Part shown: positions 14,412 to 48,935 of the stretch, one piece after another | How positions within the stretch are numbered: position 1 is the first letter of the stretch | How the letters are laid out: each line of letters opens with the position of its first letter | IMG/VR virus record: IMGVR_UViG_3300017728_000013 | Span: 1-52,193 of that record | Length of the DNA stretch: 52,193 nt | Direction: 5' to 3' (one strand) | From: a virus | Translations under genes and position numbers: made by a program | Notes under the pieces: generated by a model | The model's input: the letters and a program-made list of their open reading frames with translations, nothing else | The model's database searches: none | What the model was told of the DNA's origin: nothing

Positions 14412-15775
14412 TATGTATTTAACTCATAATAAGTTACGAATACAGCGCCGCTAGACCCTGCACCAGTAGTACCTGAACCATTTTCTGAGGCAGAACCACC
14501 GCCCCCCGCCCCTAAATAACCATTCCCAGCGCCACCAGCAGAACCACTAGAGTGCTGTACAGCAAAACCACCTTGGAATGTATTTGATACATCGCTGCCC
14601 CATTCAGAAGGCTTTGTGGGAGCGGCTGTTCGATTACCAGCGGCATATCCTGACCCGCTTGCGGTAGAACCATTTACACCACCAGAGCCTAAATCTGGAC
14701 TACCACCACCTGTAGCCCCAGAATGGTCACTACCTAAAGATAAACCAGGACCATTCCCACCAGTATAGTTTGATTCTCCCCCAGATCCAGAGCCACCCAA
14801 TGATGCAGGACAAGTACCCCAAGCACCAATAGTTGTTGAACTAGAGCTTTCACCTACAGGTAAAGACGCGGTTATAGTAGCATCTATAGCACCCTGCCTA
14901 CCACCAAAACCTCTTGAGCCACCTGTAGCAGAGATAGTTGCGCCAGAACCTGTGGGGTTAAACGAGGTAGGTCCACCGTTTCTTCCTGATAAAACTGTTC
15001 CACTACCACCGCTGTAAACAACTCCCCCACCCCCTGCGCCAATACTAATGCTTGCACCATTAATTGTAAGCGAGCCAGAGGCGCTACCTGTTAGAGCTAT
15101 AGAGCCGCCTGCCCCGCTACCCAATGTGAGATCAACCTCTACAAAATTATTAACTGAATCAGCGTCTGTAACAGTTTGACTTGTGTTGTTAAGAGTCGTA
15201 ACATCAACGCCCAGAGATGTAAACGCAGATGGTTGAGATGTTAGGTTAGTAATAGCAACTATGTCACCCGTAATAATATCACTAGGTGCTACTAAAAATC
15301 TAACTTTTGCGGCGGTTGAACCGCTGGTTAAAACTATTTGTACCTGTGTGAAACTTGAAGTAACGGATGTAATATCATCTGGTACAGAATATCTGCGAAA
15401 AGCTGTGCCCCCCGCAGCCCCGCCTGACGCAACCTTTTCACGACCTGAATCAGTAGAGTGACCACCGCCAGAACCACCACCACCTAAAACATATACATTA
15501 TATTGCACACAACCTGATTGTGCTGGCGACCAAAAAGTACCACTAGATTTTGTTTCTGTAGTACCTTTCTTTTTAAGTATTCTATTTTTACTACGATAAT
15601 TAGAGAAAGAAGTAGTGGCACCAGAAGCAGGTAAACTACTAGGTACAGGATTAGAACCTCCATTAAGATCTGCGTTAAGGGATACAGCACCAGACTGACC
15701 ATAGTAGTCACGCAACTCACTCATAGATATTGAGCCAGAAGCATGACCAAAGTTATCTAATGAGGTGATAGTCAT
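14411..15775 (-). CDS. Glycine-rich tail fibre / adhesin-like protein
   Basis: A 454-residue protein. It starts with a short domain containing SMSELRDYYG, a motif frequent in fibre proteins of marine phages. Two long glycine/serine-rich regions (about 95-120 and 215-440) follow, with loops like GGGGSGGG, as in polyglycine-rich adhesin tips such as T4-like gp38 adhesins. It probably contributes to receptor binding at the fibre tip. The coding start overlaps the stop of the next fibre gene by one base. Confidence 0.75.
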   Translation of the reverse strand: MTITSLDNFGHASGSISMSELRDYYGQSGAVSLNADLNGGSNPVPSSLPASGATTSFSNYRSKNRILKKKGTTETKSSGTFWSPAQSGCVQYNVYVLGGGGSGGGHSTDSGREKVASGGAAGGTAFRRYSVPDDITSVTSSFTQVQIVLTSGSTAAKVRFLVAPSDIITGDIVAITNLTSQPSAFTSLGVDVTTLNNTSQTVTDADSVNNFVEVDLTLGSGAGGSIALTGSASGSLTINGASISIGAGGGGVVYSGGSGTVLSGRNGGPTSFNPTGSGATISATGGSRGFGGRQGAIDATITASLPVGESSSSTTIGAWGTCPASLGGSGSGGESNYTGGNGPGLSLGSDHSGATGGGSPDLGSGGVNGSTASGSGYAAGNRTAAPTKPSEWGSDVSNTFQGGFAVQHSSGSAGGAGNGYLGAGGGGSASENGSGTTGAGSSGAVFVTYYELNT

Positions 15776-41382: not shown

Positions 41383-41595
41383 GTGTTAATATTGTCACTG
41401 TAACATTAAGTGATACACTGAAACATTACGTTATCTGTGTATGTCATCACGAATTGTTACAACAATGTAACCATTGTATATGTAAACCACCTTATGTGTA
41501 TAGTGGTTAACAGTGTATTTTACTGATCTGTGTGTATATTCATGCATACTATCTACGCCACCCCCACTGGCCCCTGCGGCCCCTCGTGCTTCACC

Positions 41596-41614
41596 GCGCA
41601 ATTGCGCCTATAAT
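41596..41614 (+). promoter_or_regulatory. Perfect -10 box adjoining a 12-bp palindrome
   Basis: GCGCAATTGCGC (41596-41607) is a perfect palindrome, and TATAAT (41609-41614) follows one base later. The palindrome fills the place where the promoter spacer should be, which is a typical operator position. No good -35 is seen (TTCACC at 41590 is too close), which suggests an activator or a weak promoter. It would start a transcript with a leader of about 550 bases before the first early gene. Confidence 0.5.
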
Positions 41615-41874
41615 GCAAGGTCATGACGCATGGTGAGAGCAAACAGCATGTCACATTCCACCATCACATCGTAGATGTGTTTAAAAACAACCACTTACTT
41701 GTCTACGACAACTGTTATGGAATCAGTTGCCTGTCTTTAGACAGAATGGATAGGGGGATTTGCCACACTCTTAGTGTGTTGACAAGACGATGCTTATATT
41801 TCTACCCCATCCCCTCTGGGGCAATGCACATGATCCTACAAGCCACGTGCTGCTCTGCCAATGGTTCAAGTCAA

Positions 41875-41888
41875 GTCCGACGTTGGAC
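41875..41888. repeat. Palindromic repeat copy 1 (GTCCGACGTTGGAC)
   Basis: First of five copies of the GTCCRACGTTGGAC element, with G in the degenerate position. It lies in the non-coding leader, preceded by AA and followed by CTA as in the other copies. Confidence 0.85.
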
Positions 41889-42072
41889 CTATAACATCTT
41901 TGATGTTGCTAAAATGTCACAGCTAAGGTGGTGAAGCTGCGAGTTGAGGTCGCAAGTTTAGCGCATGAGTTTCAGAAAAATATTATCGAAGAGAATATTA
42001 TTTCTTGCAACAGCGTGTAAAACGGCAGGCGCAGAGGATCACGAGGCAACTTTCCAACCTCCAAAACTTATA

Positions 42073-42156
42073 CTATCTTCTTACATTTTTAATGATAGAA
42101 CTATATCTCACTTCTTGTGAGAGATATAGGTTCTCTCATATAAAAATAGAAGATAG
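42073..42156 (+). repeat. 84-nt imperfect long hairpin before first early gene
   Basis: The left arm (from CTATCTTCT) and the right arm (ending AGAAGATAG) pair over about 36 bases with a few mismatches and small bulges; the innermost CTATATCTC / GAGATATAG stem is perfect and the loop is 11 bases. There is no T run after it. It ends 17 bases before the ATG at 42173, so in RNA it would sit right at the ribosome-binding site (aaagga). It could be an RNase III site, a translation switch or a recombination site. Confidence 0.8.
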
Positions 42157-42172
42157 ATAAAGGAAGCTCAAA

Positions 42173-42763
42173 ATGGCAAATCTCGAAATTCAAAACATCT
42201 CAACTCTCGAAGATCAAGGCAAGGTTCTTTCAGAACAGTGGGCTAAAATCGAAGCTGCTGACAAGAAAAGATTCAAACTTTCAACCAAAGCTGAAGGCTT
42301 TGATACACAGCTTGGAAAGCTGATGGTCGAGCTAAAAGCTGAGGGTGGTGATCGTATCCCAAGCCAAAGGCTTCGTGATTGCCATCTTCACTTGATCGAC
42401 AAACGGCGTCGGAGCGAAGCTCTCTGGTTTGTTGAGAACGAATCAGAATGCAGAGCATTCATTGAAACCTCAAAGAAAGGTTTTACTTCACTGTCTGCTT
42501 TGCAGAGAGCAATGAAGCAGAAAGATGCTACCTCTAAAGAGGTTGCTGAGACAACAGAAAACAGCGAAGCTGTAGCAGTCAGCGAAGCTGAAACACCCAG
42601 CGAAGCTGTTGTTAAGTCCGACGTTGGACCAGTCACAAAGCAGGTTGTCTTCGACAAGCTTATCAAGGTTTGCATGGCAAATAACATTGATCCTCTGGAT
42701 CTTGCTGAGATGCTCATGGAATATGACAGCGTATCAGCCTCAGAAGAAAAGGCTGCGGCATGA
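42173..42763 (+). CDS. First early gene, unknown function, carries palindrome
   Basis: A 196-residue protein. Residues 1-105 are a charged helical domain (LEDQGKVLSEQWAKIEAADKK; IPSQRLRDCHLHLIDKRRRSEALWFVENE), residues 115-147 are an acidic E/A/T/S linker, and residues 155-190 form a second helical part. The palindromic repeat lies at the junction and encodes KSDVGP (148-153). The ribosome-binding site is aaagga. Its place after the hairpin leader makes it the probable first rightward product, perhaps a host-takeover or DNA-binding protein; no family known. Confidence 0.72.
   Translation: MANLEIQNISTLEDQGKVLSEQWAKIEAADKKRFKLSTKAEGFDTQLGKLMVELKAEGGDRIPSQRLRDCHLHLIDKRRRSEALWFVENESECRAFIETSKKGFTSLSALQRAMKQKDATSKEVAETTENSEAVAVSEAETPSEAVVKSDVGPVTKQVVFDKLIKVCMANNIDPLDLAEMLMEYDSVSASEEKAAA
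42616..42629. repeat. Palindromic repeat copy 2, inside first early gene
   Basis: GTCCGACGTTGGAC within codons 148-153 of the 196-residue protein; it encodes KSDVGP in the frame AAG-TCC-GAC-GTT-GGA-CC. Confidence 0.85.
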
Positions 42764-42981
42764 GATACAAGCAACACACATCAACCAAGGCAGAGGTGCG
42801 CTCTCAGCGTACCAATGCCCTTCGTGCGCGTTTGGATGAAGCGAGACAGCTTAAGTCCAACGTTGGACCTAAACCTTTCACAAGTGTAGATGACCTGATG
42901 GAATCATCTAAGCCTAGAGGTACACTTGTGCCAATGATGGGCAAGATGGTGATTGATAGCGGTTGGAAAGATCCAGCTTGA
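42760..42981 (+). CDS. Small basic protein carrying palindrome
   Basis: 73 residues; the ATG overlaps the previous stop (ATGA). The first 30 residues are basic and helical (RSQRTNALRARLDEARQ). The palindrome encodes KSNVGP at 32-37, exactly between this helix and a different C-terminal part (FTSVDDLMESSKPRG, MMGKMVIDSGW). The stop lies within a TTGACA box (42978). Function unknown; a basic helix followed by a linker suggests nucleic-acid binding. Confidence 0.65.
   Translation: MRYKQHTSTKAEVRSQRTNALRARLDEARQLKSNVGPKPFTSVDDLMESSKPRGTLVPMMGKMVIDSGWKDPA
42855..42868. repeat. Palindromic repeat copy 3, inside 73-aa gene
   Basis: GTCCAACGTTGGAC within codons 32-37 of the 73-residue protein; it encodes KSNVGP in the same frame as copies 2 and 5. 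The flanks TTAA before and CTAA after extend the symmetry. Confidence 0.85.
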
Positions 42982-43040
42982 CAAACTCTATGTATAGTAT
43001 AAGTTATTTATACTTGATATTTATTGAAAGTATAAATAAC
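42978..43040. promoter_or_regulatory. Intergenic region with 13-bp perfect inverted repeat
   Basis: TTGACA at 42978 overlaps the stop of the preceding gene and TATAAG follows at 42998 (14-base spacer, short). Then GTTATTTATACTT (43003-43015) and its exact complement AAGTATAAATAAC (43028-43040) form a 13-bp stem with a 12-base loop. There is no T run after it. It may be an operator for a dimeric regulator or a hairpin protecting the downstream mRNA. The next gene begins at 43068. Confidence 0.5.
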
Positions 43041-43067
43041 GTATACATATACTAGAAAGGAAGTAAA

Positions 43068-43199
43068 ATGAATACGATTAAAGTCATCACAGATCAGTAT
43101 GGTTTCTGGCATGTTTACCGTACTTGTAAAGTCACAGGTCAGCGCTCAATCTCATTCTTTGAGAATGTGGATGAAGCTAAAGCTGCCCTGCTTAAATGA
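43068..43199 (+). CDS. Small hypothetical protein (43 aa)
   Basis: The ATG at 43068 follows aaggaagtaaa, a strong ribosome-binding site. 43 residues, beginning NTIKVITDQYGFWHVYRTC and ending with ENVDEAKAALLK. It reads as a beta-hairpin with one helix. It is missed by length-limited gene calling. It lies between the inverted repeat and palindrome copy 4. Function unknown. Confidence 0.7.
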   Translation: MNTIKVITDQYGFWHVYRTCKVTGQRSISFFENVDEAKAALLK

Positions 43200-43208
43200 G
43201 AAACTTAA

Positions 43209-43222
43209 GTCCAACGTTGGAC
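43209..43222. repeat. Palindromic repeat copy 4, intergenic
   Basis: GTCCAACGTTGGAC between the 43-aa and 66-aa genes, 20 bases before the next ATG and just upstream of its ribosome-binding site. The flanks TTAA and CTAA are as in copies 3 and 5. Confidence 0.85.
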
Positions 43223-43242
43223 CTAACTAAAGGAAAGTTAAA

Positions 43243-43443
43243 ATGATAATTACTCGCACTTCACATCTCACTGGTAACACTAACGTAATGGAATTGCCCA
43301 TTACACAATCACAATTAGACGCATGGGTTGACGGTGAGTTAATCCAAAACGTCATGCCTCACCTCTCTGTCGATGAGCGTGAGTTTATAATCTCAGGGGT
43401 TACACCCGCTGAATGGAACAGTATGTTTGGAGAGGAAGTATAA
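43243..43443 (+). CDS. Small conserved phage protein
   Basis: 66 residues with aaaggaa upstream. The pattern TRTSHLTGNTNVMELPITQSQL, DGELIQNVMPHL and DEREFIISGVTPAEWNSMFG is one I recall as a conserved small protein in many phages and plasmids, without known function. A TAATG overlap links it to the next gene. Confidence 0.75.
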   Translation: MIITRTSHLTGNTNVMELPITQSQLDAWVDGELIQNVMPHLSVDEREFIISGVTPAEWNSMFGEEV

Positions 43444-43655
43444 TGCAAATCTTAGATAAGATTGACGCCCAGCAACAAGCTGCCCATGAAGCATGGCAAG
43501 TGATGCAAGATTTACGTGACATACATCGTGACTTGACACGTATCCACAGCTTCGCTGAACCTATTTCAAATGGCGATTGGCTGTCGCCCTCTATAAAAGA
43601 AAGCATGTCTAATATCGTCGAAGCCTGTGAAACATTGATTGGAGAATTAGTATAA
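43443..43655 (+). CDS. Small helical hypothetical protein
   Basis: 70 residues from the ATG at 43443, which overlaps the previous TAA; an ATG 10 codons upstream lies inside the preceding gene and is not used. Two or three helices (LDKIDAQQQAAHEAWQVMQDL; MSNIVEACETLIGEL). No motif. A one-base overlap joins it to the HhH-like gene. Confidence 0.65.
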   Translation: MQILDKIDAQQQAAHEAWQVMQDLRDIHRDLTRIHSFAEPISNGDWLSPSIKESMSNIVEACETLIGELV

Positions 43656-44284
43656 TGTATCAACGTGATGTAAATGAAATCAAAGCTTTCGTGAAATGGC
43701 GTGGCCCAGATGCCTTGGTAAACACTGGCCTGTTCGTACTGCTTACGATACAAGCTGGCCTGTCCACAGTACGTGGCAGCATGGTCAAGGTTGAACGTGA
43801 CTTCTATCAAGCTGATTGCCTATGGGGTAAAAAAGCTGATGGCTACGAATACCTAAACGAGAACAAAGAGTTCTTGTACGGCAAGCTGTACCATATAGTG
43901 GACACCAAAGGTTACGACAGTGTGGAAGCGTGTGCTGATGTCATACAACTGTTCATGGCTGTACCTAACCTTGGCATGGTCAAAGCTGCCTTTCTAGCTC
44001 AATGCTTAGGCTTCAATGTGGCATGTATTGACAGCCACAATATCAAGCGCCTTGGCCTAAAGCCCAGCGCCGTATCGACACCGCCATCAGGTATGAAACC
44101 TGCGACAGTACGCCGCAAGGTAGAGGACTACGTTGAGCTTTGCCAAAAAGAAGGCGCTGAATATTGGTGGGATACTTGGTGCGATTATGTGGCTGGCAAT
44201 CGTGCTAATCGTGCCTTAGATACTGGTGACGTTGTGTCTAGGTATCACGTAGAATGTGTAACATATGGATTTGAACATGGCTAA
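43655..44284 (+). CDS. HhH-GPD-like protein, possible DNA glycosylase
   Basis: A 209-residue protein. Residues 103-128 read VPNLGMVKAAF...LGF...CIDSHN. This resembles the helix-hairpin-helix and catalytic loop of HhH-GPD base-excision glycosylases (LPGVGRKTA...AFG...AVDTH in endonuclease III), with K110 and D126 near the positions of the catalytic Lys and Asp. No Fe-S cysteine cluster follows. The N-terminal 100 residues are helical, as expected for the fold. The activity is inference; homologues in phages are normally unnamed. Confidence 0.6.
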   Translation: MYQRDVNEIKAFVKWRGPDALVNTGLFVLLTIQAGLSTVRGSMVKVERDFYQADCLWGKKADGYEYLNENKEFLYGKLYHIVDTKGYDSVEACADVIQLFMAVPNLGMVKAAFLAQCLGFNVACIDSHNIKRLGLKPSAVSTPPSGMKPATVRRKVEDYVELCQKEGAEYWWDTWCDYVAGNRANRALDTGDVVSRYHVECVTYGFEHG

Positions 44285-44447
44285 GAAAACTTCTGTAACA
44301 TACCGTAACCCTGTGGCAAAGGCTATGTTACAGGAGCGCAAATCCCCACAGGTCGTGCCGCCTAAGAAAGGTGGCAAGGCTAAACGTAACCGCAAACAGG
44401 AGAATGAACATGCGATACGAAATGCAAAACTTCATCAAGATGACTAA
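44277..44447 (+). CDS. Small basic protein
   Basis: 56 residues from the ATG at 44277 (an in-frame ATG at 44265 would add four). It contains YRNPVAKAMLQERKSPQVV and a KKGGKAKRNRKQ stretch; very basic. The NPVAKAL pattern is common in small phage proteins. It overlaps the previous stop and the next gene in other frames. Likely nucleic-acid binding; function unknown. Confidence 0.6.
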   Translation: MAKKTSVTYRNPVAKAMLQERKSPQVVPPKKGGKAKRNRKQENEHAIRNAKLHQDD

Positions 44448-44574
44448 GGTTAAGTCCAACGTTGGACCTAATCGAAGGCGGCAAGCGTGGAAGATTGACA
44501 GAAAGAAAGATCGTTCACGTAAACTAACTCTACGCAATAGCGTAACTAACTATCGTTCAAACAAAATATCTTAA
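44410..44574 (+). CDS. Small basic protein carrying palindrome (54 aa)
   Basis: The ATG at 44410 follows caggagaatgaac, a good ribosome-binding site; 54 residues. The palindrome encodes KSNVGP at residues 15-20, just after a short helix and before a very basic tail (RRRQAWKIDRKKDRSRK). Like the 73-aa protein it starts MRY and places the hexapeptide between two dissimilar parts. Function unknown. Confidence 0.65.
   Translation: MRYEMQNFIKMTKVKSNVGPNRRRQAWKIDRKKDRSRKLTLRNSVTNYRSNKIS
44454..44467. repeat. Palindromic repeat copy 5, inside 54-aa gene
   Basis: GTCCAACGTTGGAC in codons 15-20 of the 54-residue protein, giving KSNVGP in the same frame as copies 2 and 3. Flanks TTAA and CTAA. Confidence 0.85.
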
Positions 44575-44586
44575 GGAGATATACAC

Positions 44587-44925
44587 ATGACTAACTCAAC
44601 AGCAACAGCACCCGTAGTAAAAACAGCACACCCAGAATTGTATGCAAACCATACATTCCACATGAGTAAGGCACGTAAGTACACTTACAATTACGCTGTA
44701 ATTGACGAGGTTATCAATGAGCTTTGGGGTGAGATGACTATGGCTGAGATTGCCAAGGTACTCAATGAGTATCCAAACCGCATTGCCTATCGTGTCAAGG
44801 TACTCAAAGACCTTGGTATGATCGAAGGTAAGTATAACATGGAGCGTGGCAAGTTGATGCGTATGCGTAAGATCCTGATCACCTTCTTGGATGATGTGGA
44901 TCAGCAGTTGAAAAAGACAGGTTAA
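44587..44925 (+). CDS. Putative helix-turn-helix regulator
   Basis: A 112-residue protein with a very strong ribosome-binding site (aaggagatatacac before ATG). Residues 50-82 (WGEMTMAEIAKVLNEYPNRIAYRVKVLKDLGMIEG) fit a helix-turn-helix or winged-helix domain: EIAKVLNEYPNRIAYRVKVL reads as turn plus recognition helix. It is the only clear DNA-binding regulator among the early genes and therefore the best candidate protein for the palindromes in this region. That link is inference. Confidence 0.65.
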   Translation: MTNSTATAPVVKTAHPELYANHTFHMSKARKYTYNYAVIDEVINELWGEMTMAEIAKVLNEYPNRIAYRVKVLKDLGMIEGKYNMERGKLMRMRKILITFLDDVDQQLKKTG

Positions 44926-44971: not shown

Positions 44972-45388
44972 ATGAGAGTTGAAGTATATTTCAATCTACA
45001 CAAATACATATGGTCTGTTCGTTCGTGTAAGACGGGCAGGGTGATACTTCACACTGATGAAGTACACATAGACAATCCTACGTTTGTAGTACGTAAGGCA
45101 GGACGTGAGCGTGTACTGCGTGAAGGCAAGAAGAATGTCCATGCATTTGTGCGTGGTGACATGACAGTGTTTAACGATTTTGATCATATCAAAGTCGGCT
45201 TTGATCCAGACTATGTGGACTACACACTCGTGTCGTACAACCCATACAAACATGATACGTTTGTGGATGTATGTGACGTAAGACCTGTGCGTACAGCTAA
45301 ACGTGCAGTACTAACAATACAACCTAGTACGGTGGTATATAATACCGTCAACAGACCATACCTATATGCAGAAGGAGCAAGACCATGA
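44972..45388 (+). CDS. Conserved phage protein of unknown function
   Basis: 138 residues. The pattern VEVYFNLHKYIWSVRS, TGRVILHTDEVHI, then FVVRKAGRERVLREGKKNVHAFVRG is one I recall in many phages with no function attached. It is beta-rich at the N-terminus and basic in the middle. It is coupled to the next gene by a 4-base overlap. Confidence 0.75.
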   Translation: MRVEVYFNLHKYIWSVRSCKTGRVILHTDEVHIDNPTFVVRKAGRERVLREGKKNVHAFVRGDMTVFNDFDHIKVGFDPDYVDYTLVSYNPYKHDTFVDVCDVRPVRTAKRAVLTIQPSTVVYNTVNRPYLYAEGARP

Positions 45389-47843: not shown

Positions 47844-48935
47844 TTGCCTAAACTTCCACGCTATGTACAAGAACGAGAATCACCCTCTGGGGTGATCTCA
47901 TACCGCTTCAACCCACCTCAGATGTTAGTCGATGAGGGTCTGGTTAAACGTGAGGAGTATGGGAGTGACCTAAAGCAGGTGCGTCAGATTGTCCGTAAGC
48001 ATAACAAGGCTATTGATGCGTGGCGTGAAGAACAACTTAAGGTTGGGCATATCAAGTCGAGCAGCAAGGTCACAGACCTTATTAACTTTTACTATAGGTC
48101 TAATGATTTCAATATGTTACGTGATACAACTAAGGTGGACTACAGGTACTTTCTTACCATACTGCACCAGACAATGGGTGGTCGTAAGTTTGAACACGTT
48201 ACCGCTAAGGTTGCAAAGAGGGCATATGAAGAATGGGTCAAACGTGGTGTAAGTTTTGCTAATCATGCGGCAACCTGTGCAAGTAGGGTGTACAACTATG
48301 CGATACAGATGGAGCATACCACATATAATCCTTGGGCTAACATCAAGCGTAAGTCTCCACCTCAACGAAAGGTGGTATGGACACACGACAATGTGGTTAG
48401 ATTTCTTGAGGTTGCTTACAGTGACTTTGAGTACAGGAGTGTGGGTCTGATTGTTCAGATGGCATACGAGTGGTGTCAGCGACTAGGTGACATGCGTATG
48501 TTACAATGGCATAGCCTAGATCTTGAAGGTAAGAGGCTTAACCTTGAGCAGAGCAAGCGTAGATCTGACGTGTCACTACCAGTATCAGATGATCTGTGTG
48601 AGATGTTGAAGGAGCAACGGGCTATGTATCAGACGCTTACTCATTTCGTAGTACCTCATCCTAGACCTATGGGTAGGGTGTACAAACCATATGCTATGGA
48701 ACGACTATCCAAAGTGGGTAGAAGGGTCATGCGGTTAGCTGAACTACCAGAAGAGCTACGTCTTATGGACTTGCGTAGGACTGGTGTAACACAGATGGTT
48801 GAGGCAGGTGTATCATTGCCCCAAGTCATGGCGGTGACAGGACACAATCATGTGTCTTCTGTGAAACCATATGTGAAACATACTTACGTCAGTGCAAATA
48901 ATGCATTGACACAACGAAACGAATCACTTATATAA
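47844..48935 (+). CDS. int: Tyrosine recombinase / integrase
   Basis: 363 residues, TTG start right after the previous stop with ggagg 10 bases upstream. An N-terminal arm, an SAM-like core-binding domain (about 70-165) and a catalytic domain. Catalytic residues: R213 (QRLGDM), K238, R311, H334 (TGH) and Y343. The histidine of the HxxR box is replaced by M308 (M-D-L-R). It is directly followed by primase and helicase. No repressor or excisionase is seen, so temperate life is not shown; it may process replication or packaging DNA. Confidence 0.88.
   Translation: MPKLPRYVQERESPSGVISYRFNPPQMLVDEGLVKREEYGSDLKQVRQIVRKHNKAIDAWREEQLKVGHIKSSSKVTDLINFYYRSNDFNMLRDTTKVDYRYFLTILHQTMGGRKFEHVTAKVAKRAYEEWVKRGVSFANHAATCASRVYNYAIQMEHTTYNPWANIKRKSPPQRKVVWTHDNVVRFLEVAYSDFEYRSVGLIVQMAYEWCQRLGDMRMLQWHSLDLEGKRLNLEQSKRRSDVSLPVSDDLCEMLKEQRAMYQTLTHFVVPHPRPMGRVYKPYAMERLSKVGRRVMRLAELPEELRLMDLRRTGVTQMVEAGVSLPQVMAVTGHNHVSSVKPYVKHTYVSANNALTQRNESLI

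What the first reader, a model, noticed from the sequence alone, without database searches (positions are those of the whole stretch)
41875..44467. Five-copy 14-bp palindrome confined to the early control region
GTCCRACGTTGGAC occurs at 41875, 42616, 42855, 43209 and 44454; I saw no copy elsewhere in the window by eye. Flanking bases (TTAA before, CTAA after) extend the near-symmetry. Clustering at the head of the rightward unit suggests a binding site for a dimeric protein (repressor, activator, replication or packaging factor) or a small repeated element. The HTH protein at 44587 is a candidate ligand.
Basis: seen in the sequence. Interest (0 to 1): 0.85.

Follow-up and report, generated by a model that had tools for sequence, protein, structure and literature searches.

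The report
Phage regulator and its repeated sites
Five matching mirror-symmetric DNA sites at the head of this marine phage's early genes are very likely the binding sites of the protein made by the first of those genes, because in more than a hundred related phage sequences the protein and the sites change together.

Summary
Confirmed: GTCCRACGTTGGAC occurs exactly five times, only at 41875-44467. The window is an HMO-2011-type marine podovirus close to Roseobacter phages CRP-1/CRP-345. The wider site is GTCC[A/G]A-YR-T[T/C]GGAC; relatives carry up to 8 copies, commonly one 220-330 bp upstream of the first early gene, one in that gene's linker, others up to about 4 kb on.

The best-supported ligand is not the HTH protein at 44587 but the first early gene, 42173-42763 ('gp01'), which has no convincing Pfam, PHROG, NCBIfam or PDB match. 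Of 80 loci found by gp01 protein, 76 have the site; the other four carry altered palindromes. gp01 residue 108, in a predicted helix, tracks site base 5: Thr in 90 of 93 A-type, Ser in 15 of 15 G-type rows; 9 of 9 independent pairs agree (8.9 of 9). HMO-2011 has its own five-copy variant. One gp01-less relative keeps the HTH protein but has no sites.

Best reading: a dimeric early regulator, probably a repressor acting through dispersed, stoperator-like sites. Binding is strongly inferred; repression and immunity are not shown.

The parts
41875..41888 (.). site 1, GTCCGACGTTGGAC, noncoding, 298 bp upstream of gp01
42616..42629 (.). site 2, GTCCGACGTTGGAC, inside the gp01 linker (reads S149-D-V-G-P)
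42855..42868 (.). site 3, GTCCAACGTTGGAC, inside the 73-aa ORF 42760-42981 (K-S-N-V-G-P)
43209..43222 (.). site 4, GTCCAACGTTGGAC, just after the stop of ORF 43068-43199 and before ORF 43243-43443
44454..44467 (.). site 5, GTCCAACGTTGGAC, inside a small basic ORF (44371-44574; most homologs start at the internal ATG)
42173..42763 (+). gp01, 196 aa, proposed site-binding protein: helical N-terminal domain, disordered linker, C-terminal helices
42491..42556 (+). predicted helix 107-128 of gp01 (proposed recognition helix); Ser108 codon 42494-42496, Arg112 42506-42508, Lys115 42515-42517
47844..48935 (+). tyrosine integrase; present in 33 of 33 distinct gp01 loci with at least 9 kb to the right

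Best explanation
The five palindromes are operators for gp01, the product of the first rightward early gene. gp01 most likely binds each 14-bp site as a homodimer, using the helix that starts at residue 107; residue 108, with 112 and 115 on the same helix face, reads base 5 of each half-site. With one site upstream of its own gene, one inside it and three over the next 2 kb, gp01 would limit its own synthesis and silence the early operon, by blocking elongation at, or looping between, dispersed sites: an early-gene repressor and possibly the lysogeny repressor. Shown by sequence: the site set, its concerted evolution and the covariation. Inferred strongly (about 0.9): gp01 binds the sites. Inferred (about 0.55): it represses. 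Inferred weakly (about 0.35): this is lysogenic immunity.
For: Site set: of the best 80 of 205 relatives found by gp01 protein, 76 carry the site, 64 three or more copies; the four exceptions (L161 and L162 alike, L167, L208) have CCCCAACGTTGGGG x5, CCCCGATGTCGGGG x5 and two CCCCAA-type sites. Covariation: residue 108 is T in 90 and S in 3 of 93 A-type rows, S in 15 of 15 G-type rows. On a tree from residues 1-101 there are 12 changes of site base and 13 of residue 108, and 9 of 9 independent pairs on supported branches go the same way, p 0.0039 (106 rows); (108 rows) 8.9 of 9 on average, median p 0.0039. It ranks first of the gp01 columns; 112 (K in 15 of 15 G-type, 14 of 93 A-type) and 115 (A in 10 of 15, none of 93) are on the same face. 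The three Ser rows among A-type are the window's own group, whose sites mix G and A halves. Further variants: HMO-2011 gp74, a distant homolog, has 5 copies of AGTCCG-N4-CGGACT, one about 290 bp upstream of it; L357 has Cys at 108 (read by eye) and three GTCCYAYRTRGGAC-like sites; L089 has Gly at 108 and TTGTCC-N7-GGACAA three times. DNA-level selection: where S[NDK]VG occurs it is encoded as the palindrome core in 77 of 77 gp01 (of 96 genes) and 62 of 64 basic-protein genes (of 86), about 0.4-0.6% expected from codon use. Negative relatives: CRP-2, CRP-603, CRP-207 and CRP-3 lack gp01 and have no early dyad in more than two copies. Block-mean pLDDT is 83-95 for residues 11-120. Integrase in 33 of 33 distinct gp01 loci with at least 9 kb to the right.
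Against: No binding, expression or lysogeny data. The gp01 query alignment was built mostly from motif-bearing loci and the nearest 80 relatives were kept, so the 76-of-80 figure favours close kin. None of 17 promoter-like matches (7.7 expected) overlaps a site. gp01 has only weak chance-level family hits (best Pfam DUF1465, E 0.0013, 4 of 32 members) and no fold match, so the HTH reading rests on helix order and covariation; helix 107-128 falls to pLDDT 51 in block 121-130. No gp01 was found in the bacterial genome collection by a peptide-pattern search, so no prophage supports immunity. Sites in transcribed regions have TG more than CA centres (142 to 24 in intergenic/uncertain), which a symmetric DNA site does not predict. 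Seven mixed rows were dropped's test: five have Ser, two Thr (L354, the same contig as L024, with two of four sites G-type; L268, mixed through GACCAA). Single G-type sites occur in A-type loci L113, L159 and L181 and a single A-type site in G-type L273. L089 also keeps one exact A-type site, by which it was found.
Confidence: 0.6

Rival explanations
1. gp01 binds the sites but serves DNA organisation, replication start or partition (a ParB- or initiator-like complex at the early end) rather than transcriptional silencing.
For: Sites adjoin a conserved noncoding region (five elements in 102-130 of 142 upstream regions, which include near-duplicates); gp01 has a helical domain, disordered linker and C-terminal helices, an order also seen in ParB/KorB-type proteins (recalled); one of 32 members gave a weak KorB hit, E 0.099.
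Against: Window sites are spaced 239-1245 bp, unlike iterons (recalled); no Pfam partition domain appeared in the gp01 scans. Partition partners were not searched for.
Confidence: 0.2
2. gp01 is a positive early regulator (activator or antitermination-type factor) using the same sites.
For: It is the first early gene; 163 of 221 intergenic/uncertain sites lie 5-14 nt before a loosely defined RBS-like sequence.
Against: A site inside the regulator's own gene and the lack of overlap with promoter-like matches do not suggest activation.
Confidence: 0.12
3. The element acts as an RNA hairpin (GUCCA-AYRU-UGGAC) in early transcripts.
For: Symmetric A:T to G:C changes also keep a stem; asymmetric sites are mostly G...T (15) rather than A...C (1) on the sense strand, as wobble would allow; a terminator-like match overlaps site 4 on the minus strand; TG centre bias in transcribed regions.
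Against: The asymmetric sites come mainly from the window's clade; the upstream site shows balanced centres CG 22, CA 28, TG 26; base 5 tracks one face of a predicted helix; no Rfam match in 41-45 kb.
Confidence: 0.06
4. The HTH protein at 44587 is the ligand.
For: Present in 33 of 33 gp01 loci with enough sequence; weak winged-helix and HTH family matches.
Against: No residue tracks site type clearly; L299 has it without sites.
Confidence: 0.03
5. A small mobile palindromic element inserted into genes in one tolerated frame.
For: Coding sites read in the S-x-V-G frame in 169 of 192 cases; some orthologous genes lack it; flanks are partly shared within a genome.
Against: Flanks vary between phages; copies in a genome switch type together and with gp01 residue 108; no scatter over the window or over CRP-1 and HMO-2011.
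Confidence: 0.02

Closest known systems
Stoperators of L5-clade (Cluster A) mycobacteriophages (PMC6550527, passages; PMC9283540, title and abstract start in search listing)
   Same: A repressor with many dispersed sites, one near its own gene proposed for autoregulation, in a set whose motif drifts with the repressor.
   Different: Stoperators are 13 bp, asymmetric, mostly in one orientation, as many as 30 over the genome, with a monomeric repressor described; here a few palindromes at the early end, several inside protein-coding linkers, and a protein with no recognised family.
Conserved inverted repeats (CIRs) of Streptomyces phage phiC31 and its repressor (recalled; one search found no paper)
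   Same: Palindromic sites repeated through the early region and bound by a repressor encoded there.
   Different: Different sequence and host; no protein relationship was tested here.
Lambda-type operators with a homodimeric HTH repressor (recalled)
   Same: Short dyad read by one helix per half-site; base preference set by a few residues on one helix face.
   Different: Sites dispersed over 2-4 kb rather than clustered at a promoter.

Membership tests
L5-type stoperator system | Asymmetric 13-bp sites, mostly in one orientation | tested here: not met
   Sites are 14-bp dyads
L5-type stoperator system | Sites spread across the genome | tested here: not met
   All five in 41.9-44.5 kb of the window. 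CRP-1 (apart from an integrase-codon match) and HMO-2011 likewise early only; CRP-345 has one further consensus match at 14469, where gp01-less CRP-2 and CRP-603 have the same stretch with two mismatches
L5-type stoperator system | Repressor stops elongating RNA polymerase | not testable with these tools
   needs a transcription assay
phiC31-type CIR system | Palindromic sites repeated through the early region | tested here: met
phiC31-type CIR system | Repressor homologous to phiC31 c | not tested
   no direct comparison was made
ParB-parS partition | ParB/KorB-type protein family | tested here: inconclusive
   one of 32 members E 0.099 to KorB; no fold match
Known HTH repressor families | Match to a known DNA-binding domain model | tested here: inconclusive
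   window gp01 below cut-off in Pfam and no PHROG or NCBIfam hit; members give only weak scattered hits; PDB sequence best E 0.21; no Foldseek match
HMO-2011-type phage | Shared replication, portal and terminase genes with HMO-2011/CRP phages | tested here: met

The most novel reading that the evidence does not exclude
gp01 founds an unrecognised family of DNA-binding phage repressors in an abundant marine phage group: a one-gene early switch in which the first gene silences the genes behind it through several dispersed dyads, some hidden as in-frame linker codons, with a natural library of regulator-operator pairs (T108-A5, S108/K112-G5, CCCC halves, HMO-2011, L089 and L357 types) from which the recognition code and immunity groups can be read.
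Probability: 0.4. Interest if true: 0.8.

Novelty: new variant of a known kind. Interest (0 to 1): 0.66.

Why it matters
[quoted passage not shown]), and 'HMO-2011-type' with 'palindrom' found no paper. A regulator with its operators would make the lysis-lysogeny question in these phages testable, would let immunity groups be predicted from metagenomes, and offers 115 typed natural protein-site pairs for a DNA-binding family with no recognised relatives.

Tried and rejected
HTH 44587 as ligand: not supported, for lack of covariation and because of L299. Integrase-codon match GTCCAAGGTTGGAC (CRP-1 6868, CRP-345 7079): it stays A-type in G-type genomes (L189, L192, L266), so treated as a coding coincidence. 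CRP-345 14469: treated as coincidence, since gp01-less CRP-2/CRP-603 have the same stretch with two mismatches. My early note that HMO-2011 lacks the sites was wrong; it has a variant. CRP-9 has three tight GTTTAA-NN-TTAAAC dyads within 100 bp and no gp01; not counted. Rfam scan of 41-45 kb: nothing. Foldseek and VIA-align on gp01: nothing useful; no claim of a new fold. L298/L300 start too close to the helicase to inform. gp01 in plasmids: none; in phages: CRP-1, CRP-345 and HMO-2011 (two records) at E 0.01. Distant gp01 queries L139 and L089 found only their own sequences. Search for a phiC31 paper: none held. The structure model of 44587 was not used further. De novo scan of L161 missed its sites because that filter dropped two-letter halves; they are.
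Full report
OBSERVATION. The motif GTCCRACGTTGGAC is present exactly five times, at the stated places, and nowhere else within three mismatches. Three copies are perfect 14-bp palindromes. The window is a virus record of 52,193 bases whose portal-terminase and early regions match Roseobacter phages CRP-1 and CRP-345; its helicase is 85.5% identical to that of CRP-345, 77.0% to CRP-1, 69.4% to HMO-2011. It is an HMO-2011-type podovirus.

THE SITE IN RELATIVES. In 49 records chosen because they hold the motif there are 1-5 copies each, and the reversed control pattern never occurs. In 53 gp01-bearing loci (582,583 bases) GTCC-N6-GGAC has centres AACGTT 101, AATGTT 56, AACATT 38 and few others, while six control patterns give 0 to 19. 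The consensus is therefore GTCC[A/G]A-YR-T[T/C]GGAC. CRP-1 and CRP-345 have four such early sites each.

WHICH PROTEIN. Of the window ORFs compared with the 119 motif-selected loci, the first early ORF, 42173-42763 (gp01), is the most widely shared (48 loci). I then searched IMG/VR with the gp01 alignment, not with the site: 205 relatives, best 80 kept. The query alignment was built mostly from motif-bearing loci, so near kin are favoured. Of these 80 loci 76 have at least one site, 73 two, 64 three. The remaining four have palindromes of altered sequence: CCCCAACGTTGGGG five times (L161, L162, same sequence), CCCCGATGTCGGGG five times (L167), two CCCCAA-type sites (L208). Positions are fairly stable: commonly 220-330 bp upstream of the gp01 start and 380-460 into the gene, then up to about 4 kb on. 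The site inside gp01 is absent in some (for example L071, L170, L196), so it is not obligatory.

COVARIATION. Loci fall into A-type (GTCCAA halves) and G-type (GTCCGA halves). In 86 of 103 loci with three or more sites all sites are of one type; shuffling gives a mean of 36 and a maximum of 49. Among gp01 columns residue 108 stands out: A-type T 87, S 3, G 1, G-type S 15 of 15; in the enlarged set A-type T 90, S 3, G-type S 15 of 15. Residues 112 (K in 15 of 15 G-type, 14 of 93 A-type) and 115 (A in 10 of 15, 0 of 93) follow; 108, 112 and 115 are one face of the predicted helix 107-128. Residue 150 also ranks high but is encoded by the site itself. On a tree from residues 1-101 only, the site base changes 12 times and residue 108 13 times; on supported branches 9 independent pairs differ in site type, and residue 108 goes the same way in 9 of 9 or 8.9 of 9 on average, sign test p 0.0039. 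Dropped before these tests: 5 and 7 mixed rows, and untyped ones; of the 7, five have Ser and two Thr. The three Ser rows in the A class and four of the mixed rows belong to the window's own group, which has Ser108 and both half-site types, as if in transition. Exceptions at single sites exist in L113, L159, L181 and L273.

OUTLIERS. Of 125 distinct full-length gp01, 10 had too few consensus sites to type. Of these, L357 has three GTCCYAYRTRGGAC-like sites and, by eye, Cys at 108; L089 has TTGTCC-N7-GGACAA three times beside one A-type site, and Gly at 108; HMO-2011 gp74 has five copies of AGTCCG-N4-CGGACT, at 53878, 54807, 60, 1261 and 1926. L177, L377, L356 and L327 show further sites with CC centres; L328, L318 and L183 had little flank and stay unresolved.

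NEGATIVE CASES. CRP-2, CRP-603, CRP-207 and CRP-3 have no gp01 by profile search and no dyad in more than two copies in their early 9 kb. CRP-738, CRP-212, CRP-235 and HTVC033P were scanned over bases 1-50000 only: no gp01 and no site within two mismatches there. L299, a phage contig binned in a MAG, has conserved upstream elements, the HTH protein and the integrase, but a GP88 protein (PF17338) where gp01 would be, and no site. It is a single case (L301 matches it in length and hits).

DNA-LEVEL CONSTRAINT. Of 489 non-redundant sites, 76 are upstream of gp01, 192 coding, 221 intergenic or uncertain; coding sites are in the S-x-V-G frame in 169 of 192. Where the peptide S[NDK]VG occurs, it is encoded as the palindrome core in 77 of 77 gp01 and 62 of 64 basic-protein genes from protein-selected loci, against about 0.4-0.6% expected from codon use. 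So the nucleotide sequence, not only the peptide, is kept.

MECHANISM. gp01 has a helical N-terminal domain (block pLDDT 83-95 for residues 11-120), a disordered linker (127-152, where site 2 lies) and two C-terminal helices. I propose a homodimer on each dyad. Site 1 upstream and site 2 inside its own gene suggest autoregulation; sites 3-5 behind it suggest silencing of downstream genes by roadblock or looping. That is inference by analogy with L5 stoperators (PMC6550527, passages: a site near rep, and sites in downstream genes that may reduce transcription) and phiC31 CIRs (recalled). None of 17 promoter-like matches overlaps a site. Integrase is present in 33 of 33 gp01 loci with enough sequence. 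CRP-3, a relative without gp01, integrates into tRNA-Met, while lysogeny of CRP-1 is unknown (PMC6918029, passages). No gp01 was found in bacterial genomes (pattern-based, so weak) or plasmids.

STATUS. Known kind: phage regulator with repeated operators. New here: the protein family, the sites, their in-frame embedding and the natural specificity series. In print: 'HMO-2011-type' with 'palindrom' gave no paper; 'HMO-2011', 'operator', 'repressor' gave one listing, on a Psychrobacter phage, not read. Only open-licence papers are held, so print elsewhere is not excluded.

Noticed in passing
window 41461-41735: Conserved noncoding elements upstream of gp01: TGGTTAAC in 130 of 142 upstream regions (near-duplicates included), ATCAGTTGCC in 127 (also HMO-2011), TGATCTGTG in 117, CAACTGTTA in 113, TAGTTTTACAC in 102. 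Candidate origin, cos/pac or promoter.
   Followed up: partly
window 41623-41934: ORF with tblastn similarity in 19 loci, overlapping the conserved noncoding region; may be conserved DNA rather than a gene.
   Followed up: no
window 42560-42615: Three AGCGAAGCT mini-hairpins in the gp01 linker beside site 2; CACCTTCGGTG-like small hairpins lie beside some sites in relatives.
   Followed up: no
L127/L306 (CRP-9), about 622-709 bp before record base 1: Three clustered GTTTAA-NN-TTAAAC dyads in a gp01-less relative, possibly another regulator's sites.
   Followed up: no
L299:4651-5376; L129 (CRP-2) 749-1504; L130 (CRP-603) 503-1243: GP88 (PF17338) stands at or near the head of the early operon in gp01-less relatives.
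   Followed up: partly
window 44972-45388: L5 gp82-like protein (PF25735, E 3.3e-33), another early-gene link to L5-type phages.
   Followed up: no
sites in transcribed regions of relatives: Centre TG outnumbers CA on the sense strand (coding 120 to 14, intergenic/uncertain 142 to 24) but not at the upstream site (26 to 28); the intergenic bias is unexplained.
   Followed up: partly
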